Source: Roseovarius sp. THAF9
Lineage (GTDB): Bacteria > Pseudomonadota > Alphaproteobacteria > Rhodobacterales > Rhodobacteraceae
Length of the DNA: 64,000 nt
NCBI RefSeq assembly: GCF_009363715.1
Contig: NZ_CP045404.1
Location: 3,316,001 to 3,380,000 of the forward strand
Direction: 5' to 3'
The position numbers were made by a program, and so were the translations under genes. Below, piece after piece: positions 47,901-63,818 of this stretch. Within the stretch, counting starts at the first letter, position 1. The number at the start of each line of letters is the position of its first letter. The notes under the pieces were generated by a model. That model was not told where the DNA came from and made no database searches. It saw nothing but the letters and a program-made list of their open reading frames with translations.

Positions 47901-49229
47901 TCACAGCTCCGCGCCTGCCTTCCATTCCCCCCACTTCATCGTCGCATTCGCCCCGATATAGGTGAACGGCAGCGGCGGCAGGCGTGATGGCTCCCCCTGC
48001 GCCATGACGTGTTCCGCGATTTCCGAGCGGTACCCCGAGGCCAACTCCGCCATCGCCATCCCGTGCAGCGTACCCCGCGCCGTCCCCAGCCCGTTCTGGC
48101 AACAGGCCGAGAACAGCCCTTCTTCCACCTCGCCCAGCGCCGGCGCGCCGTTCCAGCTGAGGCACAGCCGTCCACCCCAGCGATACTCCATCTCGGCACC
48201 CGCAAGCTGCGGAAACCGTGCCGCGAACGCCGTGTCATGCGACCGGCCCATTGCCGCTACTCGCCTTTGGGAAATCTTCAGCGACGGATCATAGGTCACA
48301 CGGTTGCGCATGATGATCCGCGTGCCGCCCGTGCCACTGATCTTGCGCACCGTGCTGCCCATCGGGTCCGCCGGTGTCAGCCCCCAGCGTTCCGCGCCAA
48401 GCCGGGCAGTCTCGCTGTCAGTCAGCGGCCGCGTCATCGAGGCATACAGAAACAGGTGCAACAAGCGTCCCGTGAATTGCCCGAAACTCTCCGCATGACC
48501 ATTCACCGCCAGTATTACCTTCGGCGCCGTCACACGGCCCCTGGGCGTCACCGCAACCCAATCGCCCTCGCGCCGCAGCTCGGTCACAGGCGACTCCTCG
48601 CAGATGCGCACCCGGTTGCTGGCCAAACCCTTTGCCACGCCCCGCACGAACAGCGCCGGCTGGATCATCGCCGTGCCGGGCGTATAAAGCCCGCTACGAT
48701 AATACTCCGATCCGGTCATGTCCCGCATCGCATCGGCATCCAGCAACTCATGCGCCTCGCCCATCGCTTCAAGATGCGCGGCATAATCAAGGTTGTGGCG
48801 ATGCCCTTTCTCGCTCGCCGCCGCGTTGGTCTTGCCCGACCGCGTAAAGGCTTCCGCGCCCAGCCCGAACGCCTCCGCCATCTCTCCGGCAAAACCGATG
48901 GCCGTCCGGTTCATCCGCGTCTGCCTGACGTCCTTCTCCAGCGCCCCGCCGTAATCCTGCGACGACAGGTCATGCGGCAAATCGATCATGAAGCCCGAGT
49001 TGCGGCCCGCCGGCCCTTCCCCGATTCGCTTGGCTTCCAACAGGACGATCCGAGCCTCCGGGTGCAGCTGGCTCAACCGCCGCACGGCCGCCAGCCCGGC
49101 GAACCCGCCGCCGATCACGAGCCAATCCGCCGTCATCGCCGAATCCAGCGGCTTTGCAGGCTCCGCTTCAGGCAGGATCGCGTTCCACCCGGTCACACCC
49201 GGATCACACGGCAACTGGCGCACCTTCAT
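47901..49229 (-). CDS. FAD-dependent oxidoreductase (DAO/PuuB-like)
   Basis: A 442-residue flavoprotein of the D-amino-acid-oxidase superfamily. The dinucleotide fold is DWLVIGGGFAGLAAVRRL (GGGFAG at residues 40-45), with a second FAD motif GPAGRNSGFMIDLPHD and a C-terminal YRWGGRLCLSWNGAPALGEV/FSACCQNGLG segment. Relatives oxidise secondary or glutamylated amines (for example gamma-glutamylputrescine oxidase) and sarcosine-like compounds. It is the last gene of the minus-strand catabolic cluster. Its ATG at 49229 overlaps the stop of a 28-codon open frame that links it to the P450 gene. Confidence 0.87.
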   Translation of the reverse strand: MKVRQLPCDPGVTGWNAILPEAEPAKPLDSAMTADWLVIGGGFAGLAAVRRLSQLHPEARIVLLEAKRIGEGPAGRNSGFMIDLPHDLSSQDYGGALEKDVRQTRMNRTAIGFAGEMAEAFGLGAEAFTRSGKTNAAASEKGHRHNLDYAAHLEAMGEAHELLDADAMRDMTGSEYYRSGLYTPGTAMIQPALFVRGVAKGLASNRVRICEESPVTELRREGDWVAVTPRGRVTAPKVILAVNGHAESFGQFTGRLLHLFLYASMTRPLTDSETARLGAERWGLTPADPMGSTVRKISGTGGTRIIMRNRVTYDPSLKISQRRVAAMGRSHDTAFAARFPQLAGAEMEYRWGGRLCLSWNGAPALGEVEEGLFSACCQNGLGTARGTLHGMAMAELASGYRSEIAEHVMAQGEPSRLPPLPFTYIGANATMKWGEWKAGAEL

Positions 49230-49312
49230 GGCAGATGCAACCTTGCGAACCGGCCCACGCCCCAAGCCCGGACCTCGTCCGCAACCAGCGCACCCGTAAC
49301 CGGACACCGCAT
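49226..49312 (-). CDS. Possible 28-codon coupling ORF between P450 and FAD oxidoreductase genes
   Basis: A short frame beginning MRCPVTGALVADEVRAWG. Its ATG shares a base with the P450 stop (TGATG) and its TGA overlaps the start of the oxidoreductase (ATGA), so ribosomes could pass through all three frames. It has no ribosome site of its own and no recognisable domain. It may serve only to couple translation, may be a real small protein, or may be chance. Confidence 0.35.
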   Translation of the reverse strand: MRCPVTGALVADEVRAWGVGRFARLHLP

Positions 49313-50496
49313 CACGCCACCTCGTAGCGAACGGGCAGGCGCAGCGCGCCCGTGTTGCCGCTGTCCGGCAACCATTCCGGTGTGCCGTCATACGCAACCG
49401 TACGGAATGTCTGACGCAACGCATCCAGCGCACAACCCGTGTCGGTCCGCGCCACGAAATGCCCGATGCAGTGATGCGCCCCGCCGCCGAACCCGAAATG
49501 CCGCTTGCGCTTGACCGTGATGTCAAAGCCCGGGTCCTCGCAAATCTCCGGGTCCCGCGCCGAGGCATGGACCAGCAGATTCAGAACCGTGCCCTTCGGG
49601 ATCACCATCCCGTCCATCTCGACAACCTCCACCGCCTCGCGGGTGGACCACGTCGTGGTGGGCCGCGCGCGAATGAACTCTTCCACCGCGTTCGGGATCA
49701 GGCTCTCATCCTCGCGCAGCATTTGCCACTGCTCGGGGTTCTCGATGAACAGCGACAGGCCAAGCCCCAGCAACGCCCGCGTCGTATCCACGCCCCCGAA
49801 GATCGAAATCACGATGGTGTTCAGCAATTCCTCGTGCGTGCAGTCCCCGTTGCGGTCGAACTCCGCCACCATGCGCGCAACATACGACTGCGTATCCTCG
49901 CCGCGCCGCACCCTGGCCACCAATTGATCGGCCAGCTGGAACAGCGTCTCGCAGGCCGCGTTGAACCGCTCCTGGTATTTCGGCGCCTCGATCCCCATCG
50001 CCAGCCCCAGATCGGCGGCATTGTGCGCCACCAGCGGCCACGCCTCACGCTCCATCCCCAGCAGCGTCGTGATCGCTTGCCCCGCAAAGGGCTCGCAAAA
50101 CGCCGACTGAAACTCGCAGGAAGATTTGCCGCGCAGGTCCGCACAAAGGTCCCGCGCAATCTCATCAAAGGCCGGGACCAGCGACAGCACATACTCCTCG
50201 CTCAACGCCGGCACCGCCAGCGCGCGCAGCTTCTGATGCGCCTCGCCCTCTCGCCCGATCACCGAATCCCGCCAAAAATCCGCGAACCGGCCTTCAATCC
50301 CGACCGTCTCGGGCCAGTTGTGGCTGCCCTGCCGAAACCGCCGGTCGCGCAGGATCTTGCCCACCTGACGGTATCTCAAAACCGCCAAGCCAAAGGGCGT
50401 CTCGGCGCACCAATGGGCCTTGCGCGCCGCGACAACCTCCGCCCCCCGGGTCGAGAACTCCGGGTCTTTGAGGTCCAGATACGGCAGGTTGCCCAT
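49312..50496 (-). CDS. Cytochrome P450
   Basis: A 394-residue soluble bacterial P450. The heme loop is FGFGGGAHHCIG with the axial cysteine near C343, the oxygen-binding I-helix reads IFGGVDTTRA, and the K-helix ExxR is EEFIR. It should hydroxylate or N/O-dealkylate a small substrate. No ferredoxin or ferredoxin reductase gene is next to it, so redox partners must be elsewhere. ATG 50496 (after GGGGAG) is preferred over a GTG three codons upstream. It lies 30 bases after the MttB-family gene; oxidative N-demethylation is a natural guess in that context. Confidence 0.92.
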   Translation of the reverse strand: MGNLPYLDLKDPEFSTRGAEVVAARKAHWCAETPFGLAVLRYRQVGKILRDRRFRQGSHNWPETVGIEGRFADFWRDSVIGREGEAHQKLRALAVPALSEEYVLSLVPAFDEIARDLCADLRGKSSCEFQSAFCEPFAGQAITTLLGMEREAWPLVAHNAADLGLAMGIEAPKYQERFNAACETLFQLADQLVARVRRGEDTQSYVARMVAEFDRNGDCTHEELLNTIVISIFGGVDTTRALLGLGLSLFIENPEQWQMLREDESLIPNAVEEFIRARPTTTWSTREAVEVVEMDGMVIPKGTVLNLLVHASARDPEICEDPGFDITVKRKRHFGFGGGAHHCIGHFVARTDTGCALDALRQTFRTVAYDGTPEWLPDSGNTGALRLPVRYEVA

Positions 50497-50526
50497 TCGC
50501 GTCACTCCCCGCGCCGCGGCGCGTTC

Positions 50527-52080
50527 TCAATACTCCTGGTTCAGCGCATCCGCCGCCGGGATCTCGCTTTCGCGCGTGGCAATATACGCCAGCAGCGCCT
50601 CGTTCACACCTTCGTCCAGCTTCGGTGCCTGATACTCGTTCAGCATCTTGCGCGCATAGGCCTGCGCCCGCGCATTGGCCTCCACAGCGCCCTCGGCCTG
50701 CCACTGCTCGATCGAGTTGTTGTCGAACAGGTCCGGCATAAAGAACGCCCGCTGAAAATTCGCCAGCGTATGGGGATGGCCCAAGTAATGCCCGCCCGGC
50801 CCGATATCGCCCACGGCGGCCACCGCCTCGTCGAAATCGTCCCAGCGGATGCCTTCGGCCATCCGGTAAGCCATCGCGCATTGCTCGGCGTCAATCACGA
50901 ACTTTGCCATCGAGCAATGCATCCCCGCCTCGTTCCAGCCCGCGGCGTGCCACATGTAATTCGTCCCGGCCATCTGCAACGCCATCAGGGTCGTCGCACT
51001 CTCGTACCCCGCCTGCGCGTCCAGCGTCTTGGCCCCGCCAAGGCTGGCAGAGGACCGCCACGGCACGCCATAGAACCGCGCCATCTGCCCGATCATCATG
51101 TTCATCAGGCTGATCTCGGGTGTCCCCGCCATCGGCGCGCCCGACTTCATGCTGACCGTCGACAGGTAGTGCCCATAGATCGCCGGTGCCCCCTTGCGAA
51201 TGACCTGCGTATAGGCCAGCGCGCTCAGCGCCTCGGCATTCAACTGCGCCACCGTCGGCGCGACAGACGCCGGCGTATTGGCCCCGCCCAGCACGAACGG
51301 GCTGCACAGCACCGGCTGGTTGCGGCGGCAGAACGCCCGCATCGCACCCAACATGGTTTCGTCCCAGACCAGCGGGCTGTTGCCGTTGCAGTTCCCCGTC
51401 ACAACCGGGTGCGTCTCCATGAACTCCTCGCCAAAGAGGATCGCGCACATCTCCATCACGTCCTCGGCGTTCTTGGGGCTGGTCGTCATCCCCATGAACG
51501 TCTTGTCCGAGTGCTTCATCGATGAATAGGTGATCCGCAGATGCCGCTGGCTGATCGGGTGGTCATACGGCTCCACGATATGATGCGCGCTGGAATGCAG
51601 CGCAGGCGACATCTGCGCCAGCTTGTGGAAATTCGCCAGATCCTCCAGCGTCGGGTTCCGCCGCACGTCGTCCAGATCGCGCAGGAACGGCGCGCCCGTC
51701 ATCGGCACGAAAATCGCATGCTCCTTGCCGAAGGGCAGGTTATTGGCCGGGTTCCGCGCGTGATAGGTGAACGTCTCGGGGATCGTCCTGATCAACTCCC
51801 GCACCAGCCCCCGGTCCAGATGCACCCGGTCGCCATCGCGCACCTCCGCGCCGACCCGCTTCCAGTCGGCAATCGCGATCTCGTCGCGAAAGATCACGCC
51901 GACGTTTTCGAGGATATCCATACTCGCCGCATCGATTCGCTCGATCTCGCCGGCACTCATCGGCTCGGTCAGCGGCAACCCCCGCTTCAAGCTGGGCAAC
52001 ATGGTCACGTCCCGCACGGCCCGCAACGCGGTCCGCGTGCCGCGCCCTCGACGCGCCGGTTTTTCTGCAATTGCTGTCAC
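50527..52080 (-). CDS. Trimethylamine methyltransferase (MttB) family protein, non-pyrrolysine type
   Basis: A 517-residue MttB-superfamily TIM-barrel protein with family segments such as TGAPFLRDLDDVRRNPTLED, MGMTTSPKNAEDVMEMC, ELNAEAL-type helix and a conserved GGAKTLDAQAGYESA segment. The frame runs through without an internal amber codon, so it is not a pyrrolysine enzyme; such relatives take a methyl group from glycine betaine, proline betaine or carnitine. They normally need a corrinoid protein, which is not encoded nearby. The GTG start overlaps the stop of the ProC-like gene (GTGA). Confidence 0.9.
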   Translation of the reverse strand: MTAIAEKPARRGRGTRTALRAVRDVTMLPSLKRGLPLTEPMSAGEIERIDAASMDILENVGVIFRDEIAIADWKRVGAEVRDGDRVHLDRGLVRELIRTIPETFTYHARNPANNLPFGKEHAIFVPMTGAPFLRDLDDVRRNPTLEDLANFHKLAQMSPALHSSAHHIVEPYDHPISQRHLRITYSSMKHSDKTFMGMTTSPKNAEDVMEMCAILFGEEFMETHPVVTGNCNGNSPLVWDETMLGAMRAFCRRNQPVLCSPFVLGGANTPASVAPTVAQLNAEALSALAYTQVIRKGAPAIYGHYLSTVSMKSGAPMAGTPEISLMNMMIGQMARFYGVPWRSSASLGGAKTLDAQAGYESATTLMALQMAGTNYMWHAAGWNEAGMHCSMAKFVIDAEQCAMAYRMAEGIRWDDFDEAVAAVGDIGPGGHYLGHPHTLANFQRAFFMPDLFDNNSIEQWQAEGAVEANARAQAYARKMLNEYQAPKLDEGVNEALLAYIATRESEIPAADALNQEY

Positions 52081-52841
52081 GCGTCGTCCTCCATGCTGTC
52101 TGAAATTCCGTCCAGTATTCCGGGCAACCCGTCAAAGGCCCTCTGCGCCGCCAGCCCCTCGACCATCTGCAGGTTCAGGGTGTTGGGCGTGGCCAGCGCC
52201 ATCTTCTCGTTGTGCAACTCTCCCGCGTGATCTCGGCCGAGGCCGTTCAGCACGCCTGTCACCAGGTTGCTGACGTAGATTTCCGCCGCCTCGGGCGACC
52301 CGGTCTTCCCCGCCAGCCACCCGGCGCCTTCTTCCAGAAGGCCAAGCGCTGCGGCCACCATCGTCGAGGCCGCGAAATGGTGATTCAGCGCCGCCTCGTC
52401 CGCCTGCGGCAGCACAGGGTTCTCGGCCCCAAAGAGCGCCCGCACGACGCCCGGATCCCCCGCCACTGGCAAGGGGCAGCCGCCGTTCTCGATAAACCCG
52501 TAAGGGATCGTCACCGACACATCGCGAACCGGCGCACAGGCTGCCTCGATCTCGGCCAACGGCACGCCCGCCATGACCGACACGATCTTCTGATCCGCCC
52601 GGAACGGCAGGCCCGCAACGACGTCTTTCCAGACCGCCGGACGCAAGCACAAAAGAACGATCTCACTCCGCTCCACGACCTCGGCATTCTCCGCCACCGC
52701 GATGCCCACACCACTCTCCGCCAGCGCCGCCGACACCGCCTCACTGCGCCGCGACACCGTCACGTCATGCCCGGACCGGGCCAGCGCCCGCGCCATCGGC
52801 GCCGCGATATGTCCGGCTCCTAGGAATCCAACCCGGCTCAT
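52077..52841 (-). CDS. ProC-like NAD(P)-binding oxidoreductase
   Basis: A 254-residue protein of the pyrroline-5-carboxylate reductase family. The N-terminal Rossmann motif is RVGFLGAGHIAAPMARALA, and the C-terminal half is helical with EEGAGWLAGKTGSPEAAEIY. It could reduce a cyclic imine or oxidise a cyclic amine; exact substrate unknown. Both ends overlap neighbours by four bases (MttB-like and aldehyde dehydrogenase), so it is a fixed part of this pathway. A pyrroline-type reductase suggests a ring amine or an imine among the intermediates. Confidence 0.85.
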   Translation of the reverse strand: MSRVGFLGAGHIAAPMARALARSGHDVTVSRRSEAVSAALAESGVGIAVAENAEVVERSEIVLLCLRPAVWKDVVAGLPFRADQKIVSVMAGVPLAEIEAACAPVRDVSVTIPYGFIENGGCPLPVAGDPGVVRALFGAENPVLPQADEAALNHHFAASTMVAAALGLLEEGAGWLAGKTGSPEAAEIYVSNLVTGVLNGLGRDHAGELHNEKMALATPNTLNLQMVEGLAAQRAFDGLPGILDGISDSMEDDA

Positions 52842-54331
52842 CCCACCAGATCTCCGTCCTTGGGATCACTCAGATCGACCCAGATCGTCTTGACCTCGGT
52901 GAACTGGTCATGCGCATGCACGCCATTGTCACGCCCGCCGAAACCGGACTGCTTGTAGCCCCCGAAAGGCGTGGCGATGTCCCCTTCGCCATAGCAGTTC
53001 ACCGTCACAGTCCCCGCGCAGATCTCCCGTGCCGCCCGGATCGCCCGCCGCACATTCGAGGTATAGACCGACGCCGCCAGCCCATAGGCCGTGTCATTGG
53101 CCAACTCGATGGCCTCCGCCTCGCTCGCCACCTCGATCACCGACAGGACCGGGCCGAAAATCTCTTCGCGCGTGCGCTTGTCGTCTTTCTTGACCTCGTA
53201 AACCGTCGGCTCGACGAAATTGCCCTTTGGCTTGCCGCCCCCGGCCACCGCCTTGCCCTTCAGATACCCGGCCACCTTCTTGCAATGCTCGGCATCCACC
53301 AGCGCGCCCAGATGGTTCGCCGGGTCCAGCGGATCGCCGGTTTTCCAATCGCGCATCCGCGCCACGATCCGCTCCATCAGCGGCGCCTTGACGGCCTTGT
53401 GCACGATCAGGCGGCTACAGGCCGAGCAATTCTCACCCATGTTCCAGAACGCCGCGTTCACCACATGCTCGGCTACGTGATCGAGGTTCTCGGCATCCTC
53501 CAGAACAACAGCGGGGTTCTTGCCCCCGCATTCCAGCGTGACCTTCTTCATGTTGCTGTCCGCCGCATAGCGCAGGAACCGCTTGCCGATCTCGGTCGAG
53601 CCGGTAAAGCTTACCATGTCCACGCCCATGTGCAGGCCCAGCGGCTCGCCCACGCTCGGCCCATCCCCCGGCAACACCTGCAACACGCCGCGCGGCACGC
53701 CCGCCATATGCGCCACCTCCGCCAGCCGCAACGCGGTCAGGCTGGTCTGCTCGGCGGGCTTCACGATCACCGAATTGCCTGCCGCCAGCGCTGGCCCGAT
53801 CTTCCAGGCCATCATCAACAGCGGAAAGTTCCACGGCAGCACGCAGGCCACCACGCCCAAAGGCTCCCGTACGATCAGGCTCAGCGCGTCGTCCCCCGAC
53901 GGCCCCACCTGGTCATAGATCTTGTCGATCAGTTCGGCATGCCACTTGATCGTGTGAATGACCTCGGGAATGTCCACGGTCTCGCAGTCCCGGATGGGCT
54001 TGCCGCTATCGAGGCTCTCCATCACCGCGAATTCGTGCCGCCGCCGCGTGATCAGTTTGCACAACCGGATCAGCACATCCTTCCGCGCGCCCGGATGCGC
54101 CTTCGCCCACTCGCCGCGCTCGAACGCCTCCCGCGCCTTTTCCACGGCGAAATCCACATCCTTCGCGTTCGCGGTCGATATCTTCGCCAGAACGTCCCCC
54201 GTCGCGGGGTTCACCGTCTCCATCACCGGCCCCGACCCCTTGCGGAACTTGCCATCGACAAAAGGCGCCTTGGGCAGATCGATCTCGGCGGCAATCGCGC
54301 CGTATTCTTCCCGTGTCAGAAGCTCGCTCAT
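52838..54331 (-). CDS. NAD(P)-dependent aldehyde dehydrogenase (PuuC/BADH-like)
   Basis: A 497-residue class I/II type ALDH. Catalytic residues: N168 in LPWNFP, E267 in LECGGKNP and C302 in MGENCSACSR; the nucleotide loop is SFTGSTEIGKR (241-251). Sequence style is close to betaine-aldehyde and gamma-glutamyl-aminobutyraldehyde dehydrogenases. It would oxidise an amino-aldehyde made by the flavoprotein or P450 of the cluster. It is coupled by ATGA to both the DapA-like gene upstream and the ProC-like gene downstream. Confidence 0.93.
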   Translation of the reverse strand: MSELLTREEYGAIAAEIDLPKAPFVDGKFRKGSGPVMETVNPATGDVLAKISTANAKDVDFAVEKAREAFERGEWAKAHPGARKDVLIRLCKLITRRRHEFAVMESLDSGKPIRDCETVDIPEVIHTIKWHAELIDKIYDQVGPSGDDALSLIVREPLGVVACVLPWNFPLLMMAWKIGPALAAGNSVIVKPAEQTSLTALRLAEVAHMAGVPRGVLQVLPGDGPSVGEPLGLHMGVDMVSFTGSTEIGKRFLRYAADSNMKKVTLECGGKNPAVVLEDAENLDHVAEHVVNAAFWNMGENCSACSRLIVHKAVKAPLMERIVARMRDWKTGDPLDPANHLGALVDAEHCKKVAGYLKGKAVAGGGKPKGNFVEPTVYEVKKDDKRTREEIFGPVLSVIEVASEAEAIELANDTAYGLAASVYTSNVRRAIRAAREICAGTVTVNCYGEGDIATPFGGYKQSGFGGRDNGVHAHDQFTEVKTIWVDLSDPKDGDLVG

Positions 54332-55236
54332 GTCCTGCCCCCTTCGATCGCGGCAATCGCCGTGTTCATCGTGCGGATCACCTCTTCGAGGTTCCGCTTG
54401 TCATCCTTGTTCAGCGGCAACAGCGGCTTGCGCGGCGGCCCCGCCGGAATGCCCCGCATCGTCACACCATGCTTGATGCACTGGATGAACTTGCCGCCCT
54501 GCTCCAGCACCCGCATCAGCGGCATCATCGCCGACATGATCGCCCGGCCTTTGGTGAAATCCCCCTCCACCACGCAGGCCCGGTACAGCGCCACATGCGC
54601 CTCGGGCGCGAAATTCGACCCGGCACAGACCCAGCCCTTCGCCCCCCAGGCAAAGAATTCCAGCGCCTGGTCATCCATCCCGCACAGAAGGCCCATATGC
54701 GGATACTCCCGGGCGATCAGGTGCAGCCGGTTGATGTCGCCGCTGCTCTCCTTGATGCCGCAGAAATTGGGCGAACGGCCCAGGCGATCCAGCGTCTCCT
54801 CGTCCATGTTCACGCCCATCCGGCCCGGGTAATTATACAGCATCACCGGCATATCCACCGCCCGGTCGATGGCCAAAGCGTGCAGCGCAATCTCGCGCCC
54901 CGTCGGCACCGAATAAGGCGGCGTCGCCACCAGGATCGCATCCGCGCCCACATCCTTCGCCATCTTCGCAAACGCGACGCTATCCTCGGTACGCAGCGCG
55001 CCCGTGCCCACGACCAGCGGCACACGCCCCTTGATCAGCGCATGCGTCTTCCGGGCCAGCCATTCGCGCTCTTCAAAGCTCTGCGCATAATACTCCCCCG
55101 TGGTCCCGGCACTGATGATCCCGGCCACGCCGCCCGCGATCAGCTGCTCCACCACGTCCCCCAGCGCGCCCTCGTCCACCGTGAAATCCTCACGATAGGG
55201 CGTCACGATGGGCGTCCAGATCCCCTCAAACTGCAT
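54328..55236 (-). CDS. Dihydrodipicolinate synthase (DapA/NAL) family lyase
   Basis: A 302-residue class I aldolase-fold protein. It keeps GTTGEYY (residues 44-50), the catalytic tyrosine Y134 in LYNYPGR and the Schiff-base lysine K162 in GIKESSGD. The cluster context points to a catabolic member (aldolase, dehydratase or deaminase) rather than lysine synthesis. ATG 55236 follows AAGGA and lies inside the 3' end of the gntR gene. Its stop overlaps the aldehyde dehydrogenase start. Confidence 0.9.
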   Translation of the reverse strand: MQFEGIWTPIVTPYREDFTVDEGALGDVVEQLIAGGVAGIISAGTTGEYYAQSFEEREWLARKTHALIKGRVPLVVGTGALRTEDSVAFAKMAKDVGADAILVATPPYSVPTGREIALHALAIDRAVDMPVMLYNYPGRMGVNMDEETLDRLGRSPNFCGIKESSGDINRLHLIAREYPHMGLLCGMDDQALEFFAWGAKGWVCAGSNFAPEAHVALYRACVVEGDFTKGRAIMSAMMPLMRVLEQGGKFIQCIKHGVTMRGIPAGPPRKPLLPLNKDDKRNLEEVIRTMNTAIAAIEGGRT

Positions 55237-55930
55237 CTTCACGATCCTTCATCGGCAAAACGTCGATCGGCAACGGATCGGGACTCACGAACCGCTCCAG
55301 CCGATCGCGCGACAGGTTCCAGTGCTCGATCGTCAGATCCACCATCAGGCCCGGCTCCTGCCGCTCGATGGCCACGATCATTGCGTCATGGTGGTCGCAC
55401 GCCTTCACCACCCGCAACGACTCGTCCGCCGAGGCGGGGCGATAGAATGTCTGGCTCAGCCGCGTATGGTCGATCAGCATGCGCTTCAGGCTGGGCAACA
55501 GATAGGGATTGTGCGCCATCTCCCCCATCGCCAAGTGAAAGCGGTGGTTCTGCAACGCCGCCTTCGCCGCGTCGCCCGTCTGCGTCGCCCGGCGAAACGC
55601 GTCCTGGATCCCCTTCAGCCCGTCGATCTCATCCGGCCGCCGGTTTTCCGCCGCCAGCCGCGCGACATTGGCATAGATCATCGGCGCGGTCTGAAAGAAC
55701 GTCCGCAGCACCGGCAGATCCATCGACGCCACCTTGGCGCCGCGGTTCTGCGTCAGGTCCACATACCCCTCACCGCCCAGCCGCTGCAGGATCTCCCGCA
55801 TCGGCGTGCGCGACATGCCGTACCGCTCGCACAGCGTCGCCTCATCCAGATCGCTGCCCGGCGCGATATCCTGCGTCAGGATGCGCATCCGCAAGTCTTC
55901 CAGGCACTGAGTCTTCTTGTCGGCGGTCAA
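55226..55930 (-). CDS. GntR-family (FCD subfamily) regulator of the catabolic cluster
   Basis: A 234-residue transcription factor: winged helix at about 8-75 (ATLCERYGMSRTPMREILQRL), then an FCD domain with histidines in QNHRFHLAMGE, LLPSLKRMLIDHTRL and KACDHHDAMI. The TTG at 55930 is the probable start because a perfect AAAGGAG lies seven bases before it; a GTG at 55954 would overlap that site. A 28-bp nested palindrome centred 30 bases upstream is the likely autoregulatory operator. It is the first gene of the unit that continues through the FAD oxidoreductase. Confidence 0.87.
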   Translation of the reverse strand: MTADKKTQCLEDLRMRILTQDIAPGSDLDEATLCERYGMSRTPMREILQRLGGEGYVDLTQNRGAKVASMDLPVLRTFFQTAPMIYANVARLAAENRRPDEIDGLKGIQDAFRRATQTGDAAKAALQNHRFHLAMGEMAHNPYLLPSLKRMLIDHTRLSQTFYRPASADESLRVVKACDHHDAMIVAIERQEPGLMVDLTIEHWNLSRDRLERFVSPDPLPIDVLPMKDREDAV

Positions 55931-55946
55931 AACGAATCTCCTTTCT

Positions 55947-55974
55947 GAATACACAATGTATACATCTCGTATTC
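55947..55974. promoter_or_regulatory. 28-bp nested palindrome, probable GntR operator
   Basis: The core ATGTATACAT (55956-55965) is a perfect palindrome, and outer arms GAATAC (55947-55952) and GTATTC (55969-55974) are also perfect with the same centre. The core resembles the TTGTATACAA operator at 5616, as expected for FCD-type GntR proteins. It sits directly upstream of the gntR start. Confidence 0.75.
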
Positions 55975-56170: not shown

Positions 56171-56770
56171 TTACCGCCGCCCACCCACCGGCGGATCGGC
56201 CCGGCTCGCGTCCCAGTCGGGCTCGAACCCCAGAACCTCGGTCGCCGGCGGCAGGGTCGGATTGAACAGCACGTTATGCGCCATCGTCGACTGGTGCAGC
56301 ATGTTGTGCGGCGCCAGCCGCCAGACCTTGCAAGCCAGCTCGAACTCCTGCCCATAAGCCGCGAAGCGCAGCGTCGCATGGCCCGCCTCGTGCAGCGTCT
56401 TGGCGCCTTCGCTGCCCGGAGGGAAGGTCGCGGTCAGGATGTCCGAGAACTCCTTGGCCTTCTGATAATACGTCGCCGACAGGAACTGCAGCGCGTTTTG
56501 CCGCCGCTGCGCCGGGTCGTTGGTCTTGGCCGCCATGTGCTGCAACTCGGGCGTCACCGAATACCCCGGCGCTTTGTTCAAAAGCGTGATCACAACGCCC
56601 ATCGGCTGGTCATGCCCCTCTGGCGTGACTTCCGGCATAATCGCGTCATCCGGCCGCCCGTCATTGTTGCGCATCGCCAGCTGCCGCACATGGCACTGCC
56701 ACTTCAAAAACCCCAGTCGCAGCGGATTGTCGGAATAGCTTTGCCCCAGTTGGGCCGCCAAAGATGTCAT
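56171..56770 (-). CDS. Hypothetical protein in the amine catabolic cluster
   Basis: A 199-residue soluble protein that I do not recognise. It has no signal peptide or membrane helix, is rich in His, Met and aromatic residues, and contains FLKWQCHVRQLAMRNNDGRP near residues 20-39 and HEAGHATLRF near 126-135. HEAGH looks like part of a zinc-protease motif, but the rest of such a domain is not evident. The ATG overlaps the stop of the nitrilase gene, so it is tied to this pathway. Confidence 0.7.
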   Translation of the reverse strand: MTSLAAQLGQSYSDNPLRLGFLKWQCHVRQLAMRNNDGRPDDAIMPEVTPEGHDQPMGVVITLLNKAPGYSVTPELQHMAAKTNDPAQRRQNALQFLSATYYQKAKEFSDILTATFPPGSEGAKTLHEAGHATLRFAAYGQEFELACKVWRLAPHNMLHQSTMAHNVLFNPTLPPATEVLGFEPDWDASRADPPVGGRR

Positions 56771-57618
56771 GCCACGCTCCTCTCGGGGTCTGGCGTTTCC
56801 ATATCGAACTCCCGGTCGCTGGTCAGGCTTGGCACCCGACCGGCGGCCTTTTCCACGTCATCCAGGTCGATCTCCGCCTGCACCACGCCCGGCTCCGTGC
56901 CACCCTCGGCAATCACCTCGCCCCACGGCCCGACGATCAGCGAATGCCCGAAACATTCGCCCCCGCCCGGCACCGGCCCGATGGCACAAGGCGAGACGAC
57001 AAAGCGCGTGTTTTCGATCGCCCGCGCCCGGTTCAGCACATGCCAATGCGCCTCACCCGTCTTCCTGGTAAAGGCGGCAGGACATATCAGCATCTCCGCG
57101 CCGGCCTGCGCCAGCCCACGCCACAGCATCGGAAACCGCAGGTCATAACAGATAGTATGCCCGATCCGCCCGAACGGCGTGTCGTGAATGACGGCCCGGC
57201 TGCCCGGCGCCACCCGTTCGCTTTCGCGATAGACTTCCGTCTCGCTCAACTGGATATCGAACATGTGGATCTTGTCATACCGCCCGGTGACCCTGCCGGA
57301 CGCATCCAGCATGATCCCGCGATTGATGATCCGCCCGTCCGGGCCATCGACGGCGATGGAGCCGAGGTTGATCCACACCCCCGCCTCCCGCGCGAACGCC
57401 TGCGCCTCGCGCAAAAACGGATGATCGTCCTCGGGGGCCGAGGGCGCCGCCACAGCCGCACCCTCCGTTTTCAACCCGCCGCAATATTCCGGCAGGAAAA
57501 GAACCTGCGCCCCGTCAGCGACCGCCTGTTCGGCCAGTGGCCGAGCCTCCGTCCAGGCCGATGCGAAATCGGGCATGGGCCGTGTCTGCAGGCAGGCGAT
57601 ATTGATCGGGCGCGTCAT
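56767..57618 (-). CDS. Carbon-nitrogen hydrolase (nitrilase superfamily, omega-amidase-like)
   Basis: A 283-residue amidase with the complete Glu-Lys-Cys triad: E44 in FLPEYCGG, K116 in RYDKIHMFDI and C157 in TICYDLRFP. The KIHMFDI context is typical of the Nit1/Nit2 branch, which hydrolyses omega-amides such as 2-oxoglutaramate. In this cluster it could release ammonia or an amine from a gamma-glutamyl or other amide intermediate. ATG 57618 follows AAAGGA; a TTG five codons upstream lacks a site. It is coupled by ATGA to the unknown gene downstream. Confidence 0.9.
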   Translation of the reverse strand: MTRPINIACLQTRPMPDFASAWTEARPLAEQAVADGAQVLFLPEYCGGLKTEGAAVAAPSAPEDDHPFLREAQAFAREAGVWINLGSIAVDGPDGRIINRGIMLDASGRVTGRYDKIHMFDIQLSETEVYRESERVAPGSRAVIHDTPFGRIGHTICYDLRFPMLWRGLAQAGAEMLICPAAFTRKTGEAHWHVLNRARAIENTRFVVSPCAIGPVPGGGECFGHSLIVGPWGEVIAEGGTEPGVVQAEIDLDDVEKAAGRVPSLTSDREFDMETPDPERSVA

Positions 57619-57640
57619 GTCTGGTCCTTTCAAAGTTCCT

Positions 57641-58054
57641 TCAGAACTTCATATAGGCCTTGCGCAGGTTCACCAAAGGGTGCCGGTCCGACATCTGGAA
57701 CTTGATCAAGAGTTCCCGCGCGATCATGTCCCGATCCTGCTGGTTGTCGGGCAGCTCGATCGTGTCGGGCACCCGCACCCAGCCGTTGTTGTTGCGGTCG
57801 AACACCGCCGGCGAGCCTTCCTCGTAGCCCATGTGCACGTCTTCCAGCCAGTTCAGGTCGTCCCAGCCCATGGTCTCTATGTATTTTTCCAAGAACGGTG
57901 TGATCCGGTCATAATCCGGCACAAGGTTCACGTCATAGCGATAGCCGATATGCTGGCCGATTTCCTTTTCACGTTCCGAGCCAAGCCCGTCCTTGTCCTT
58001 CAGGAACTGGTCGACATCGGTAATCTCCGAGCCGCGATATTGTGTTCCAGCCAT
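57641..58054 (-). CDS. Hypothetical protein in the amine catabolic cluster
   Basis: A 137-residue acidic, soluble protein that I do not recognise, opening MAGTQYRGSEITDVDQFLKD and containing WDDLNWLEDVHMGYEEGSPA. No enzyme motif is visible. It follows the FMN-domain gene of the split glutamate synthase and precedes the nitrilase by 22 bases, with a strong GGAGG before ATG 58054. It may be a small subunit or assembly factor for that trio. Confidence 0.75.
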   Translation of the reverse strand: MAGTQYRGSEITDVDQFLKDKDGLGSEREKEIGQHIGYRYDVNLVPDYDRITPFLEKYIETMGWDDLNWLEDVHMGYEEGSPAVFDRNNNGWVRVPDTIELPDNQQDRDMIARELLIKFQMSDRHPLVNLRKAYMKF

Positions 58055-59497: not shown

Positions 59498-59534
59498 GAT
59501 TTTGTTCCTTTCGGTTCAACACCGTAGGTCGTGT

Positions 59535-59562: not shown

Positions 59563-59565
59563 GCG

Positions 59566-60435
59566 TTACAGGATGAGCTTCTTCTCGGACGGCTCGAGGT
59601 TGTCGTAGTTCCACAGCATCTTGCCGGCGACGACCTTGGTGAAGTGATCCACCCCCTTTTCGGGCATCAGGCCGTATTGCGTCAGCTTCCGTGTCAGCCA
59701 CTTCTTGTCCAGATCGGTCAGCTCCGCCTCGACAGCATCCACACCAAGGCTCTTGATTTCTCCGCCCACGTAAATCGTGCCGTCATACATCGAGTCGCCC
59801 AGGTTCTTGCCCGCGTTGCCGCAGACCACCATCCGGCCCCGTTGCATCATGAAGCCACTCAGCGCGCCCGTGTCGCCACCGACGATGATCGTGCCACCCT
59901 TCTGGTCGATCCCCGTGCGCGAGCCCACCGAGCCGCGGCACACAAGGTCGCCGCCTCGAATGGCCGCGCCAAAGGTCGAACCGGCGTTCTTCTCGATCAT
60001 GATCGTCCCGGACATCATGTTCTCGCCGCAGGACCAGCCCACACGCCCGCTGATGCGCACGTTCGGCCCGTCGATCAGGCCGACGGAAAAGTACCCGGTC
60101 GAGCCTTCGATGATCAGGTTCAGCTTGCTCAGGATCCCCACGCCAAGGCTGTGCATGCCCCGCGGGTTCTGCAGCACGATCGTGCCATAACCTTCCTTCA
60201 TCAACTCGCGGATGTTCGAGTTCACTTCCGTCACGGTCTTGCCGTCACAGTCGATCTCGGTCCGCTTGTTGAAGTCCACGTCGGGCGCCCACGGATAGGT
60301 GAAACGCTCCTCGGCATCCGGGTCGAACTCGACGTAAAGCGACTTGCCCGTCAGCTGTTCGGTCCGCATGCCCAGCGCGGTCACCCGCTCCTCCTGGGTC
60401 ATCTTCTTCAGTTCTGCGTCGCTCACGCTTGCCAT
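59566..60435 (-). CDS. GXGXG-domain protein of split glutamate synthase (GlxC/MgsB-like)
   Basis: A 289-residue beta-helix protein equal to the C-terminal domain of glutamate synthase. Repeated glycine-rich turns include GGTIIVGGDTGALSGFMMQR and GNAGKNLGDSMYDGTIYVGG. In the full enzyme this domain supports the ammonia tunnel. Its ATG at 60435 lies 13 bases inside the 3' end of the amidotransferase gene, so the subunits are made together. Confidence 0.9.
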   Translation of the reverse strand: MASVSDAELKKMTQEERVTALGMRTEQLTGKSLYVEFDPDAEERFTYPWAPDVDFNKRTEIDCDGKTVTEVNSNIRELMKEGYGTIVLQNPRGMHSLGVGILSKLNLIIEGSTGYFSVGLIDGPNVRISGRVGWSCGENMMSGTIMIEKNAGSTFGAAIRGGDLVCRGSVGSRTGIDQKGGTIIVGGDTGALSGFMMQRGRMVVCGNAGKNLGDSMYDGTIYVGGEIKSLGVDAVEAELTDLDKKWLTRKLTQYGLMPEKGVDHFTKVVAGKMLWNYDNLEPSEKKLIL

Positions 60436-61358
60436 ACCCGGACCTCCTCATCATAGGGATCTGTCGTGTCGATTTCCTGCGGAAGGATCGCGCGGATCGC
60501 CACCTCTTCGCTCGCCATTGCAATGAGGTCGTCGGATTCGTAAAGAACCAGCGGTTTCGCCGCCATCGTGTCCTTCGCCATGCCCAGCTGGTCCTTGGTG
60601 GCCACGAGGTACGTGAACACCCCGTCGATCTCCTCGATCGACTTGCGCAGGGATTCTTCCAGCGTGATGCCGTTGGCCAGGTTGTGCGCGGTGTAGACCG
60701 CCAGCAGTTCGCTGTCGCAGTTCGACATGAACCGGTGACCCTTGCGCTCCATCTCGCGGCGCATGATCCAGTAGTTCGTGATCTGGCCGTTATGCACCAC
60801 GCTCACGTCGTTATAGGGAAACGCCCAGTAAGGGTGGGCCGACTTGATATCGACATCCGATTCCGTGGCCATCCGCGTGTGCCCGATGGCGTGCGTGCCC
60901 TTGAAATCATTCAGGCCATAGGCCTCGGACACCACCGACGCGTCGCCCAGGTCCTTGATCAGCTCCAGGCCGTTGCCCATCGACAGGATCTCGATTCCGT
61001 CGGTTTCCTCGATATGCTCGGCCATCTCGCCGACATTGTCGGCCCCGTTGAACACGTAGCGCAGCGCGTATTCCAAGGGCGCTTCCTTGGACTTGATCTT
61101 GGCGCCATGCTCTTCCATGACCTTTTCGACATAGGCGATGCGATCCTCGATCACCTTGTGAACGCCACGGCCCTTTTCCATGTCCTCGGCCTCGGCCACC
61201 TTCAGGCGCATGATGTAATCGCCCTCGGTCGGTTCACCATATACCGCGTAGCCGGTACTGTCCGGCCCCCGGTGCTTGAGCGCCAGCAGCATCGAGGTCA
61301 TCTCCGACCCCACGGCGCTGCTCTTGCCCTTGTAGATTAGTCCAGCAATTCCACACAT
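60423..61358 (-). CDS. Class II glutamine amidotransferase subunit (GlxB/MgsA-like)
   Basis: A 311-residue Ntn-type amidotransferase. The N-terminal Cys2 (MCGIAGLIYKG) becomes the nucleophile after methionine removal, and the active-site segments HTRMATESDVD, VVHNGQITNYW and SNCDSELLAVY are kept. It frees ammonia (or, by homology with MgsA, methylamine from gamma-glutamylmethylamide) for the FMN subunit. It follows the glutamine-synthetase-like gene after 80 bases that hold two strong hairpins. Confidence 0.9.
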   Translation of the reverse strand: MCGIAGLIYKGKSSAVGSEMTSMLLALKHRGPDSTGYAVYGEPTEGDYIMRLKVAEAEDMEKGRGVHKVIEDRIAYVEKVMEEHGAKIKSKEAPLEYALRYVFNGADNVGEMAEHIEETDGIEILSMGNGLELIKDLGDASVVSEAYGLNDFKGTHAIGHTRMATESDVDIKSAHPYWAFPYNDVSVVHNGQITNYWIMRREMERKGHRFMSNCDSELLAVYTAHNLANGITLEESLRKSIEEIDGVFTYLVATKDQLGMAKDTMAAKPLVLYESDDLIAMASEEVAIRAILPQEIDTTDPYDEEVRVWQA

Positions 61359-61396
61359 CTGGAAACGCCTCCTCTGGGTTGCATAGTCGTTAGATC

Positions 61397-61422
61397 GGCG
61401 GCGGGCTCCTCAACCCGCCGCC
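61397..61422 (-). promoter_or_regulatory. GC stem-loop between glnT-like and amidotransferase genes
   Basis: GGCGGCGGG (61397-61405) pairs perfectly with CCCGCCGCC (61414-61422) around eight bases. There is no T run on the transcribed side, so it is more likely to protect the upstream message or attenuate than to terminate fully. Confidence 0.6.
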
Positions 61423-61427
61423 AGACG

Positions 61428-61457
61428 CATGGAATGCCTCAGGGCAGGCATTCCATG
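61428..61457 (-). promoter_or_regulatory. 12-bp perfect stem-loop spanning the glnT-like stop codon
   Basis: CATGGAATGCCT (61428-61439) is exactly inverted as AGGCATTCCATG (61446-61457), with a six-base loop. The stem includes the last codons and the TGA stop of the glutamine-synthetase-like gene. Together with the neighbouring hairpin it forms a folded 3' end that could raise the level of the ligase mRNA over the synthase mRNA. Confidence 0.65.
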
Positions 61458-62917
61458 TACGTGTCCTTGTCCCAATCCGTCACGGTGGACATGAACCGGG
61501 CATATTCGTCGTGCTTGTACTCGTCGAACAGGCGGTACATCTCGCCGGGCATCCCGCGCTGCACCACTTCGTCCTTCTTCAGGAAGTCCAGCGCCTCGCC
61601 AAGCGACATGGGCAGCTTCTTCACTTCCTTGCCGGCCTCGATCGCGGCGTAGATGTTGCGCTCTTCCGGCTCGCCCGGATCCAGCTTGTTGTCGATCCCG
61701 TCGTCCATCGCCGCCAGCAGCGTCGTGCCCATCAGGTACGGGTTCACCATGCTGTCGACCGAACGGTACTCGAACCGCCCCGGCGCCGAAACGCGCAGAC
61801 CCGTGGTGCGGTTCTGGAAACCCCAGTCGGCAAAGACCGGCGCCCAGAAACCCGTGTCCCAAAGACGACGGTAAGAGTTCACCGTCGAACAGCCCACGGC
61901 GGTCAGCGCCTGCAGGTGATGCACCACTCCGCCGATCGCCTCGAGGCCTTCCTTGCCGGGCATCTGCGGGTCGTCGTCATCGGGCATGAACGTGTTCTCG
62001 CCGCCCTTGACGTACATGTAGTTCTCTTTCATCCCCGGCAGATCCTTGGGATCATTGCCGCACTTGACGAACTCGTCCTCGCCGCCCCGCCACAGGCTCA
62101 TGTTGTGGTGACAACCGCTCGCCGACACGCCCATGAACGGCTTGGTCATAAAACAGGCGAAAATGCCGTTCTCGCGCGCCACCTGCGCACAGATCTGGCG
62201 GTAGGTGGTCAGACGGTCCGCGTTGCGCAGCACGTCGTCGAACATCCAGTTCAGCTCCAGCTGGCCGGGCGCGTCCTCGTGGTCGCCCTGGATCATGTCG
62301 AGGCCCATCATGCGGGCGTACTTGATCACCTGCATCGACACCGGGCGCAGGCTCTCGAACTGGTCGATGTGATAGCAATAGGGCTTGGAATAGCCGTCGC
62401 GCGGCTTGCCGTTCTCGTCGAATTTCAGCCACATCATCTCGGGCTCGGTCCCGATCCGCAGGCTCCGGCCATGCTTCTTTTTGAAGTCTTCGTGCATGCG
62501 CCGCAGGTTGCCCCTGCAATCCGAGGTCAGGAATCCACCCGGATTTTCCTTTTCCTCGCGGTTGCGGAACAGCGTGCAATAAAAGCGCCCGATCGTCGGC
62601 GCCCAGGGCAGCTGCATGAAGGTTTCAGGTTCCGGAATGCCCACCAGCTCGGCCGCTTCCGGGCCATAGCCCAGGTACTCGCCCGCGCGGTTGGTGAACA
62701 GGTTCACAGTGGCGCCATAAACCAGCTGAAAGCCCTTCTTCGCGACGGTTTCCCAGTGATCGGCAGGAATGCCCTTGCCCATGATCTTGCCGGTCACCGA
62801 CACGAATTGCAGATAAAGGTACTCGATGCCTTTCGCATCGATCATCTTGCGGACTTCTTTGATTTTCTCGTCGCGCCCGGGGGCCTCGACAAATTTCTCA
62901 AGATCCATTTCAGCCAC
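61439..62917 (-). CDS. Glutamine-synthetase-like ligase (GlnT/GSIII/GmaS group)
   Basis: A 492-residue GS-fold enzyme. It has the GTEPEMMWLKF metal site (about residues 155-165), ELNWMFDDVLRNADR, the nucleotide loop GCHHNMSLW (about 269-277), and the NSYRRL/SAPGRFEYRS block near 346-375. Members make glutamine, gamma-glutamylmethylamide or other gamma-glutamyl amides from glutamate, ATP and an amine. It heads a unit with the split glutamate synthase, like gmaS-mgsABC or glnT-glxBCD, but the N-methylglutamate dehydrogenase genes are absent. It is longer than the roughly 435-470 residues usual for GmaS or GlnT. The GTG start follows GGGAG. Confidence 0.9.
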   Translation of the reverse strand: MAEMDLEKFVEAPGRDEKIKEVRKMIDAKGIEYLYLQFVSVTGKIMGKGIPADHWETVAKKGFQLVYGATVNLFTNRAGEYLGYGPEAAELVGIPEPETFMQLPWAPTIGRFYCTLFRNREEKENPGGFLTSDCRGNLRRMHEDFKKKHGRSLRIGTEPEMMWLKFDENGKPRDGYSKPYCYHIDQFESLRPVSMQVIKYARMMGLDMIQGDHEDAPGQLELNWMFDDVLRNADRLTTYRQICAQVARENGIFACFMTKPFMGVSASGCHHNMSLWRGGEDEFVKCGNDPKDLPGMKENYMYVKGGENTFMPDDDDPQMPGKEGLEAIGGVVHHLQALTAVGCSTVNSYRRLWDTGFWAPVFADWGFQNRTTGLRVSAPGRFEYRSVDSMVNPYLMGTTLLAAMDDGIDNKLDPGEPEERNIYAAIEAGKEVKKLPMSLGEALDFLKKDEVVQRGMPGEMYRLFDEYKHDEYARFMSTVTDWDKDTYMECLP

Positions 62918-63134
62918 GGTCTAGCTCCCTGATGTTGTGCCGCCCTGGTCGGATCGAGGATCGAAGGGCAGCTGGTCTTTTAGGTGGCATGAGCAGACAT
63001 CGCGGTGCCGCCCAGCACCCTCACGATTCCGAGCCTCAATCCAAAAGTCAACCGATTTTGATCCAAACATGCATATTTCGCTGGAAATAGCCGCCATATG
63101 GTATATAATTGGTCTAGTTAACGGAGGAATCACA

Positions 63135-63818
63135 GTGGGTGACGCACAAAGAATGGGCGCGGCGGATATCGCCGGCCTTATCCGGCGCGAAATTTCCAAG
63201 GGCACGCTGCAACAGCATGACCGCCTGCCACCCGAACGGGTGCTGTCCGAGACATACGGCGCCGCTCGCGGCACCGTGCGCAAGGCGCTCATGCAATTGG
63301 AATCCGAAGGTTTTGTCGAGATCCGACCGGGCAGCGGCACCTATGTCATGCACAAGACCGAGACGGCGGCGGCCAGCGCCATCGACAACGCCACGCCGCT
63401 GGAACTGATGGATGCCCGATTCGCGCTCGAGCCGCACAGCTGCCGTCTGTCGGTCCTGCATGGCCGCCACGCCGATTTCGACCGGATGGAAGAGCTTTGC
63501 GACCAGATGGAGGCCAGCCTCGACGACCCCGCCGCGTTTTCCGAGGCCGACACGCAGTTTCACCGCGCCATCGCCGACAGCACCCGCAACGGCCTACTTG
63601 TCTGGATCCTCACCCAGATCGGCAGCGTCCGGGGCCAGGACGACTGGACCCGCATGCGCCGCCTGACGCTGGATGAGCCGACGATCACCACTTACAACAG
63701 GCAACACCGCCAGATCCTCGAGGCGTTGCGCGCCCGCGAACCCGAACGCGCCGCGAACATCATGAAAGAGCATCTTGAAACCGCAAGGCTGTCACTCACG
63801 CGGGCGTCCGAGACATAA
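63135..63818 (+). CDS. GntR-family (FadR/FCD subfamily) regulator divergent from the cluster
   Basis: A 227-residue transcription factor with a winged helix (about 8-75; RLPPERVLSETYGAARGTVRKALM) and an FCD domain (about 85-220; FHRAIADS, RQHRQILEAL, MKEHLETARL with the metal/ligand histidines). GTG 63135 is chosen for the GGAGG seven bases upstream. It diverges from the glnT-like gene across 217 bases and probably controls that unit, giving the cluster two GntR regulators. The AT-rich gap has direct heptamers TGGTATA (63100-63106) and TGGTCTA (63111-63117), 11 bases apart. Confidence 0.88.
   Translation: MGDAQRMGAADIAGLIRREISKGTLQQHDRLPPERVLSETYGAARGTVRKALMQLESEGFVEIRPGSGTYVMHKTETAAASAIDNATPLELMDARFALEPHSCRLSVLHGRHADFDRMEELCDQMEASLDDPAAFSEADTQFHRAIADSTRNGLLVWILTQIGSVRGQDDWTRMRRLTLDEPTITTYNRQHRQILEALRAREPERAANIMKEHLETARLSLTRASET

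What the first reader, a model, noticed from the sequence alone, without database searches (positions are those of the whole stretch)
47901..63818. 15-kb uncharacterised amine catabolic cluster joining MttB, P450, FAD oxidoreductase and a split glutamate synthase
Twelve enzyme or unknown genes on one strand, mostly with overlapping starts, plus two GntR regulators. Seen: GS-like ligase, amidotransferase/GXGXG/FMN trio, nitrilase, two unknown proteins, DapA-like lyase, ALDH, ProC-like reductase, MttB-like methyltransferase, P450, FAD oxidoreductase. Known: GmaS-MgsABC converts methylamine to N-methylglutamate; PuuA/B/C/D uses gamma-glutamylation, flavin oxidation, aldehyde oxidation and amide hydrolysis. 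Inference: the cluster degrades an N-methylated or quaternary (perhaps cyclic) amine, with demethylation by MttB and/or P450, oxidation by flavoprotein and ALDH, and nitrogen capture by the GS/synthase set. I know of no described pathway with this exact set.
Basis: partly seen in the sequence, partly recalled or inferred. Interest (0 to 1): 0.88.

Follow-up and report, generated by a model that had tools for sequence, protein, structure and literature searches.

The report
Likely second dimethylamine breakdown gene module
Two separate gene sets lie side by side in a Roseovarius-like sea bacterium: one probably lets bacteria use dimethylamine without the known enzyme for it, the other probably breaks down a methylated amino acid.

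Summary
The genes are as described, but they form two modules, not one pathway. Module A (GntR, a ligase "GS2", a split glutamate synthase, unknown proteins U162 and U199, a nitrilase) is a conserved block. In relatives it usually sits in the trimethylamine island beside Tmm, TmoXVW or Tdm (45 of 64 loci with enough flank). It is not the genome's GmaS-Mgs, which lies elsewhere. In 198 family genomes module A and the DmmA class of dimethylamine monooxygenase never occur together; of 46 with Tdm, 19 have module A, 25 DmmA, 2 neither. So module A most likely does the dimethylamine step, probably by gamma-glutamylation. That would fill a gap stated in print for bacteria without Dmm (PMC5520151, PMC8918994). 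The P450 tracks Tdm and module A more than module B. Module B (GntR-DapA-ALDH-MttB-FAD oxidase) is a separate conserved, betaine-type cluster. A and B are joined in 6 of 80 loci, all Roseovarius. Substrates, chemistry and presence in SAR11 are untested, and the exclusion rests on few evolutionary switches.

The parts
62937..63818 (+). GntR1, FCD-type regulator, divergent from module A
   Evidence: Pfam FCD 95.5 bits, GntR 65.6; next to GS2 in relatives
61439..62917 (-). GS2, GmaS-like ligase (module A)
   Evidence: Gln-synt_C 256 bits; 188 bits to GmaS 7cql against 615 for the genome's true GmaS; catalytic residues of GmaS kept
60423..61358 (-). GlxB2/MgsA-like class II amidotransferase (module A)
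   Evidence: GATase_6; starts MCGIAG; that motif in 66 of 70 relatives' ORFs
59566..60435 (-). GlxC2/MgsB-like GXGXG protein (module A)
   Evidence: GXGXG 55 bits
58133..59497 (-). GlxD2/MgsC-like FMN protein (module A)
   Evidence: Glu_synthase 305 bits; 54% identical to the genome's own second copy
57641..58054 (-). U162, 137-aa unknown protein (module A core; the first ORF list gives 162 aa from an upstream GTG)
   Evidence: no Pfam or NCBIfam family; 82-93% identical in 11 relatives
56767..57633 (-). Nit, CN_hydrolase (module A; missing in some lineages)
   Evidence: CN_hydrolase 170 bits
56171..56770 (-). U199, predicted split-barrel protein (module A)
   Evidence: no Pfam family; model pLDDT 92, Foldseek and VIA matches to FMN/F420/haem split barrels
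55226..55954 (-). GntR2, FCD-type regulator, first gene of module B
54328..55242 (-). DapA-family lyase (module B)
   Evidence: DHDPS 217 bits; in 18 of 20 MttB regions
52838..54331 (-). aldehyde dehydrogenase (module B)
   Evidence: Aldedh 532 bits; in 18 of 20 MttB regions
52077..52841 (-). ProC-like reductase (module B, accessory)
   Evidence: in 3 of 20 MttB regions
50527..52080 (-). MttB-family methyltransferase (module B)
   Evidence: MTTB 704 bits; 488 bits to 4yyc; orthologues in 53 of 198 genomes
49312..50505 (-). cytochrome P450; lies inside module B here but tracks Tdm and module A
   Evidence: p450 84 bits
47901..49238 (-). FAD-dependent oxidase of the DAO family (module B)
   Evidence: DAO 136 bits; in 18 of 20 MttB regions

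Best explanation
Two operons, each conserved on its own, that became neighbours in Roseovarius. Module A is an alternative route for the dimethylamine (DMA) step of trimethylamine catabolism, used where the monooxygenase DmmDABC is missing. Inferred steps: GS2 joins DMA to the gamma-carboxyl of glutamate with ATP. The split synthase, with U162, moves the dimethylamino group to 2-oxoglutarate, giving N,N-dimethylglutamate, and an oxidase removes one methyl there; or the oxidase acts on the amide directly. The oxidase would be a SoxB-like FAD protein (c21) in many relatives and the P450 in the window's lineage. The product enters the ordinary GmaS/Mgs/Mgd methylamine pathway. Module B is a betaine pathway: MttB takes a methyl from a quaternary amino acid, with a corrinoid protein encoded elsewhere, the FAD oxidase opens the C-N bond, and the DapA-type lyase and ALDH finish the carbon chain. 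Shown: conservation, gene order, exclusion with the DmmA class, conserved catalytic residues. Inferred: all substrates and reactions.
For: Module A sits beside Tmm, TmoX/V/W or Tdm in 45 of 64 loci with at least 6 kb beyond U162; one representative Tmm and one Tdm pass their NCBIfam cut-offs. Tdm genomes (E 1e-250 or better): 19 module A only, 25 DmmA class only, 2 neither, 0 both, p 5e-11; inside the closer Tdm group 19 against 2, p 0.005. The window's genome has Tdm, a true GmaS-Mgs and no PF11927 match at E 0.001. GS2 keeps GmaS residues Asp177, Glu179, Glu186, Trp300 and Arg312 in 85 of 85 rows (some rows are the same gene fetched twice). GmaS itself has Km 27 uM for methylamine and 16 mM for DMA (PMC7948447). 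P450 in 11 of 46 Tdm genomes and 0 of 152 others. Module B core in 18 of 20 fetched MttB regions; corrinoid protein beside DUF1638 in the genome.
Against: The exclusion is not 46 independent events: on 23 Tdm proteins the labels need only 3 changes. The DmmA class is my cut at 215 bits in PF11927 (next score 199); its name is recalled and NCBIfam gave no match for three members. G032 and G083 have Tdm with neither module A nor that class. G010 and G166 show that the closer Tdm also works with the DmmA class. In G184 both c21 and GS2 are only partly present. Of 64 loci with flank, 19 show no TMA gene. Nit is missing in some lineages, U199 in others. No biochemical or growth evidence for module A exists in my calls.
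Confidence: 0.6

Rival explanations
1. Module A is a second monomethylamine system (isozymes of GmaS-MgsABC with other affinity or regulation). Its exclusion with Dmm only reflects two old forms of the TMA gene island, and DMA is handled by something else, for example the P450 acting alone.
For: GS2 and its synthase are homologues of GmaS-Mgs with the GmaS catalytic residues. Few independent switches. The P450 occurs only in Tdm genomes.
Against: True GmaS is present too in the window's genome and beside module A in L125, L129 and L150, so a plain isozyme would be redundant. Positions 148, 149, 174, 176 and 182 near the amine pocket are fixed otherwise in GS2 (85 of 85 rows). P450 is missing in 11 of 20 module A genomes.
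Confidence: 0.25
2. One joint pathway: module B releases methylamine or dimethylamine from a quaternary compound and module A captures it.
For: A is followed by B in the window and in 6 of 80 loci, all Roseovarius. Chemically a dimethyl amino acid oxidised at its alpha carbon would give DMA.
Against: Module B orthologues are in 53 of 198 genomes, module A in 20; co-occurrence is weak (MttB with U199: 9 of 19 against 44 of 179, p 0.053), and they are unlinked outside Roseovarius.
Confidence: 0.12
3. For module B alone: it degrades hydroxyproline betaine or proline betaine, with MttB doing the first demethylation.
For: An enolase-superfamily protein beside MttB in L019 scores 380 bits to 4e8g and 314 to 2pmq and 4h2h, which I recall as epimerases of these betaines; relatives of it are in 2 of 20 MttB regions and 3 of 80 U162 loci. 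The FAD oxidase's second best NCBIfam match is L-pipecolate oxidase (121 of 600 bits).
Against: The window lacks that epimerase; the best match in its genome is 32% identical. ALDH is nearest PuuC and betaine-aldehyde models. All these NCBIfam scores are below the curated cut-offs. Homarine could not be compared (paper not held).
Confidence: 0.35

Closest known systems
GmaS-MgsABC-Mgd (gamma-glutamylmethylamide / N-methylglutamate pathway)
   Same: GS-type ligase followed by the amidotransferase, GXGXG and FMN subunits of a split glutamate synthase; GmaS catalytic residues conserved
   Different: GS2 is about 30% identical to GmaS, both occur in one genome, and U162, Nit and U199 are extra genes; the amine is probably DMA
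DmmDABC dimethylamine monooxygenase (PMC5520151)
   Same: Place in the trimethylamine pathway, after Tdm
   Different: No homologous gene; module A occurs where the DmmA class is missing
MtgBCD glycine betaine demethylation (PMC12478193)
   Same: Module B has a PF06253 methyltransferase; the genome has a stand-alone corrinoid protein
   Different: Different subfamily and different neighbours (DapA, ALDH, FAD oxidase); substrate unknown
Hydroxyproline-betaine and proline-betaine catabolism (recalled; the papers are not held)
   Same: DapA-type lyase, ALDH, FAD oxidase, and in some relatives an HpbD-like epimerase
   Different: MttB where that pathway, as I recall it, uses a Rieske oxygenase; no epimerase in the window
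PuuABCD putrescine pathway
   Same: Gamma-glutamylation logic, oxidase and ALDH families
   Different: GS2 scores 206 against a 650-bit cut-off for gamma-glutamylputrescine synthetase; the genes of the two halves are not conserved together

Membership tests
GmaS | High similarity to characterised GmaS (7CQL); over the TIGR03105 cut-off | tested here: not met
   188 bits to 7cql against 615 for the genome's other ligase; TIGR03105 304 of 469.6 bits
GmaS | Catalytic residues Asp177, Glu186, Arg312 (PMC7948447) | tested here: met
   85 of 85 GS2 rows
GmaS | Ligase activity with methylamine | not testable with these tools
   needs enzyme assay
MgsABC N-methylglutamate synthase | Three split glutamate-synthase subunits with N-terminal Cys and Fe-S cysteines | tested here: met
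   Pfam; MCGIAG in 66 of 70 and the cysteine motif in 69 of 74 relatives' ORFs
DmmDABC | DmmA subunit (PF11927, family name recalled) | tested here: not met
   no match at E 0.001 in the window's genome
TMA gene island | Linkage to Tmm, TmoXVW, Tdm | tested here: inconclusive
   met in 45 of 64 relatives' loci; in the window's genome Tdm and TmoXVW are about 3 Mb away
MttB/MtgB cobalamin-dependent demethylases | Full-length PF06253 | tested here: met
   704 bits, residues 10-508
MttB/MtgB cobalamin-dependent demethylases | Corrinoid partner protein | tested here: met
   in the genome at C1:1996604, not next to MttB; pairing untested
Hydroxyproline/proline betaine pathway | HpbD-type epimerase in the cluster | tested here: not met
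   absent from the window; best genome match 32%; present in L019, L072, L075, L088, L089, L098
Hydroxyproline/proline betaine pathway | Growth on the betaine | not testable with these tools
   needs culture work
Homarine pathway (Nat Microbiol 2026) | Same genes | not testable with these tools
   paper not held; only its citation seen

The most novel reading that the evidence does not exclude
Module A is a ligase-dependent dimethylamine pathway: GS2 makes gamma-glutamyl-dimethylamide, which is demethylated directly by the P450 or, as N,N-dimethylglutamate, by the SoxB-like oxidase. It is the missing DMA step of the many sea bacteria that have Tmm, Tdm and GmaS but no Dmm, perhaps including SAR11, since lysine-rich U162 relatives stand for thousands of metagenome sequences.
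Probability: 0.35. Interest if true: 0.92.

Novelty: new variant of a known kind. Interest (0 to 1): 0.77.

Why it matters
Dimethylamine is a marine nitrogen source and an aerosol precursor. The paper that identified Dmm inferred a metabolic bottleneck because dmmDABC is absent from SAR11 and other marine bacteria (PMC5520151, abstract and section 15). A later paper grew SAR11 strain HTCC1062 on TMAO nitrogen and suggested an unknown replacement for Dmm (PMC8918994, section 12). A second DMA route, encoded partly by 'hypothetical protein' genes, would revise that picture and give marker genes (gs2, u162) to measure it. It also warns that GS-III-like genes counted as gmaS may be of two kinds.

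Tried and rejected
I first took the window's ligase and synthase for the genome's GmaS-Mgs; the copy at C1:2.075 Mb proved to be the true GmaS. I noted that copy as interrupted by a stop; one search shows the stop is its natural end. A structure for U162 failed (pLDDT 49). I set aside the P450 as a core module B enzyme, since 0 of 20 MttB regions have it while 11 of 11 P450 genomes have Tdm; G109 (L019) does have P450 inside module B, as the window does. The FAD oxidase has no PDB relative at E 1e-8. NCBIfam matched none of three DmmA-class proteins. An exclusive choice between c21 and P450 is suggestive only (6 of 8 against 2 of 8, p 0.13). Searches for a gamma-glutamyl-dimethylamide or dimethylglutamate route in print found none (CC-licensed PMC only), nor did on Roseovarius and dimethylamine.

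Papers: PMC5520151 abstract, passages and section 15; PMC7948447 passages and section 7; PMC8918994 passages and section 12; PMC13390433 abstract and passages; PMC7574528, PMC3160333, PMC12478193 and PMC12195410 passages. Not held: two hydroxyproline- and proline-betaine papers, PMC3870248, the homarine paper; what I say of their content is recalled.
Full report
WHAT IS THERE. The minus strand from 62917 to 47901 carries 13 enzyme or unknown genes and one GntR gene; a second GntR gene faces the other way at 62937-63818. A gap of 216 bases before the second GntR splits the run into two units: A (GS2 to the 199-aa protein) and B (GntR2 to the FAD oxidase). My labels: U162 is the 137-aa unknown (listed as 162 aa from an upstream GTG), Nit the nitrilase, U199 the 199-aa unknown. 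The nearest named locus is L083, Roseovarius confluentis, with 93-100% protein identity gene by gene; it has two SDR genes that the window lacks and lacks the window's ProC.

MODULE A IS A BLOCK OF ITS OWN. In 198 genomes of the family, one per genus, U199 is found in 19 at E 1e-5 and U162 in 19 at E 1e-10, together 20 genomes including the window's. I fetched 18 regions around U199. In 3 the contig starts inside the module (L040, L046, L048). In the other 15 the order GntR1, GS2, GlxB, GlxC, GlxD, U162, Nit, U199 holds, except that Nit is missing in 2 (L047, L049) and GS2 is only half present in L039. None of the 18 shows MttB or DapA. U162 is 82-93% identical to the window's in 11 relatives.

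IT BELONGS TO THE TRIMETHYLAMINE ISLAND. Beyond U199 in relatives lie, in varying sets, a DUF1330 protein, a trimethylamine monooxygenase (one representative scores 798 against a cut-off of 675), an ABC transporter with an OpuAC binding protein that I take for TmoXVW, and TMAO demethylase Tdm (one representative 1186 against 1100). A scan of named genomes with a U162 alignment found at least 580 stretches and kept the best 80: mostly Rhodobacteraceae, with Granulosicoccaceae, SAR116, Rhizobiaceae and Rhodospirillales records; some of them are the same contigs as in the family sample. Of the 80 loci, 64 have at least 6 kb beyond U162, and 45 of these hold at least one of Tmm, TmoX, TmoV, TmoW or Tdm at 45% identity or more; 19 do not, 8 of them with P450. 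In the window's genome the transporter and Tdm are elsewhere (C1, 385.7-392.2 kb), with no Tmm seen beside them.

IT IS NOT THE GENOME'S GmaS-Mgs. A second ligase/synthase locus lies at C1:2.075-2.079 Mb. Its ligase scores 615 bits to the solved GmaS 7CQL; the window's GS2 scores 188. GS2 keeps residues given as catalytic or characteristic in GmaS (PMC7948447): Asp177, Glu179, Glu186, Arg312, and Trp300 where ordinary glutamine synthetases have a glutamate, in 85 of 85 rows (some rows are the same gene fetched twice). Positions 148, 149, 174, 176 and 182 are fixed in all 85 GS2 rows at residues that the six close GmaS rows lack, apart from one row at position 149. Two further rows in the GmaS set, one gene of G046 fetched twice, lack several of the residues and are a third kind. 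So GS2 looks like a GmaS-type ligase of another subfamily.

IT EXCLUDES THE KNOWN DIMETHYLAMINE ENZYME. Tdm makes dimethylamine. At E 1e-250 Tdm is found in 46 of 198 genomes: 21 at 64-100% identity to the query and 25 at 52-56%. PF11927, which I recall as the family of DmmA, has matches in 148 genomes, but only 27 have the high-scoring class (215-238 bits; next score 199). Of these 27, 25 have Tdm, and in 20 of the 25 the gene is on the same contig within 29 kb. No genome has both module A and this class. Of 46 Tdm genomes, 19 have module A, 25 the DmmA class, 2 (G032, G083) neither; p 5e-11. Within the closer Tdm group the split is 19 to 2, with none having both or neither; p 0.005. The window's genome has no PF11927 match at E 0.001. 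Caution: on a tree of 23 of the 46 Tdm proteins the three labels need only 3 changes, and well-supported branches force at least 2 for the DmmA label. The pattern therefore rests on a few independent switches.

WHY THIS POINTS TO DIMETHYLAMINE. PMC5520151 reports dmmDABC absent from all SAR11 examined and from other marine bacteria, and calls it a bottleneck. PMC8918994 grew HTCC1062 with TMAO as sole nitrogen source and suggested an isoenzyme in place of Dmm. GmaS is a poor candidate: Km 27 uM for methylamine, 16 mM for dimethylamine (PMC7948447). Module A has a GmaS-like ligase with its own synthase, lies in the right island and occurs where the DmmA class is missing.

MODULE B. MttB at E 1e-200 is in 53 of 198 genomes: 51 nearly full-length matches at 73-100% identity and two partial ones. 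I fetched 20 of the other 52 regions. Of these, 18 hold DapA, ALDH and the FAD oxidase, and 17 a GntR2 relative at 50% or more; in 4 of the 18 MttB faces the other way or stands apart. ProC is in 3 of 20, the SDR pair in 5, an enolase-superfamily gene in 2, P450 in none. G109 (L019), found by its P450, has MttB, P450, the enolase gene and the SDR pair together. That enolase protein scores 380 bits to 4e8g and 314 to 2pmq and 4h2h, recalled as proline-betaine and hydroxyproline-betaine epimerases. For glycine betaine, PMC12478193 (passages) shows MtgBCD in aerobic marine bacteria and notes up to seven PF06253 genes of unknown substrate. The window's genome has five full-length PF06253 genes and a stand-alone corrinoid protein beside a DUF1638 gene. 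A betaine of an amino acid is the best guess; hydroxyproline or proline betaine is the first to test.

THE JOIN. A followed by B is seen in the window and in 6 of 80 loci, all titled Roseovarius (L083, L084, L087, L088, L089, L098). L085 and L090 have A and P450 without B in the flank held. Over the family A and MttB co-occur only weakly (9 of 19 against 44 of 179, p 0.053). The join is a lineage-level arrangement; that B releases methylamine or dimethylamine for A is a guess.

SPREAD. A U162 search reached its ceiling of 8,000 scored relatives; none of the named ones among the 120 listed bears a functional name. A 31% GC contig of the viral collection (L173) ends in the tail of a GlxD-like gene followed by a U162 relative. 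Its closest relatives include lysine-rich proteins (three read), single clusters of which stand for up to 4,202 sequences.

VERDICT. Observation confirmed; the one-pathway interpretation is only partly supported. The finding of interest is module A, a probable second route for dimethylamine. Confidence is 0.6 for the overall explanation and about 0.35 for the exact chemistry.

Noticed in passing
L173:7572-8336: A 31% GC contig from the viral collection ends in the tail of a GlxD-like gene and a U162 relative (77% identical) after about 7 kb of other genes, three of six tested with phage-family matches at E 1e-6 or better: a phage-host junction or a chimeric assembly.
   Followed up: partly
window 45014-47844: A heavy-metal P-type ATPase and a MerR-type regulator adjoin the FAD oxidase end. 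A similar ATPase gene lies next to the DAO/P450 end in L019, L085 and L090.
   Followed up: no
L026 / L171 (genome G046): Beside a P450 relative stand a GS2-like ligase (51%), a GmaS-like protein (27%) that lacks several catalytic residues, and a reductase-like frame: possibly another amine-ligase system.
   Followed up: no
G000:C1 at 1.80, 2.17, 2.61 and 2.82 Mb: Four further full-length PF06253 (MttB-family) genes, 27-43% identical to the window's, of unknown substrate, and two fragments near 235 kb.
   Followed up: no
L156: A record titled Oceanobacillus sp. HTM 045 carries module A with Tmm-TmoXVW-Tdm at 67.5% GC; the title is probably wrong.
   Followed up: no
L039:4180-5900: In genome G184 the SoxB-like gene and GS2 are each only partly present next to one another, a possible deletion or assembly fault.
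   Followed up: no
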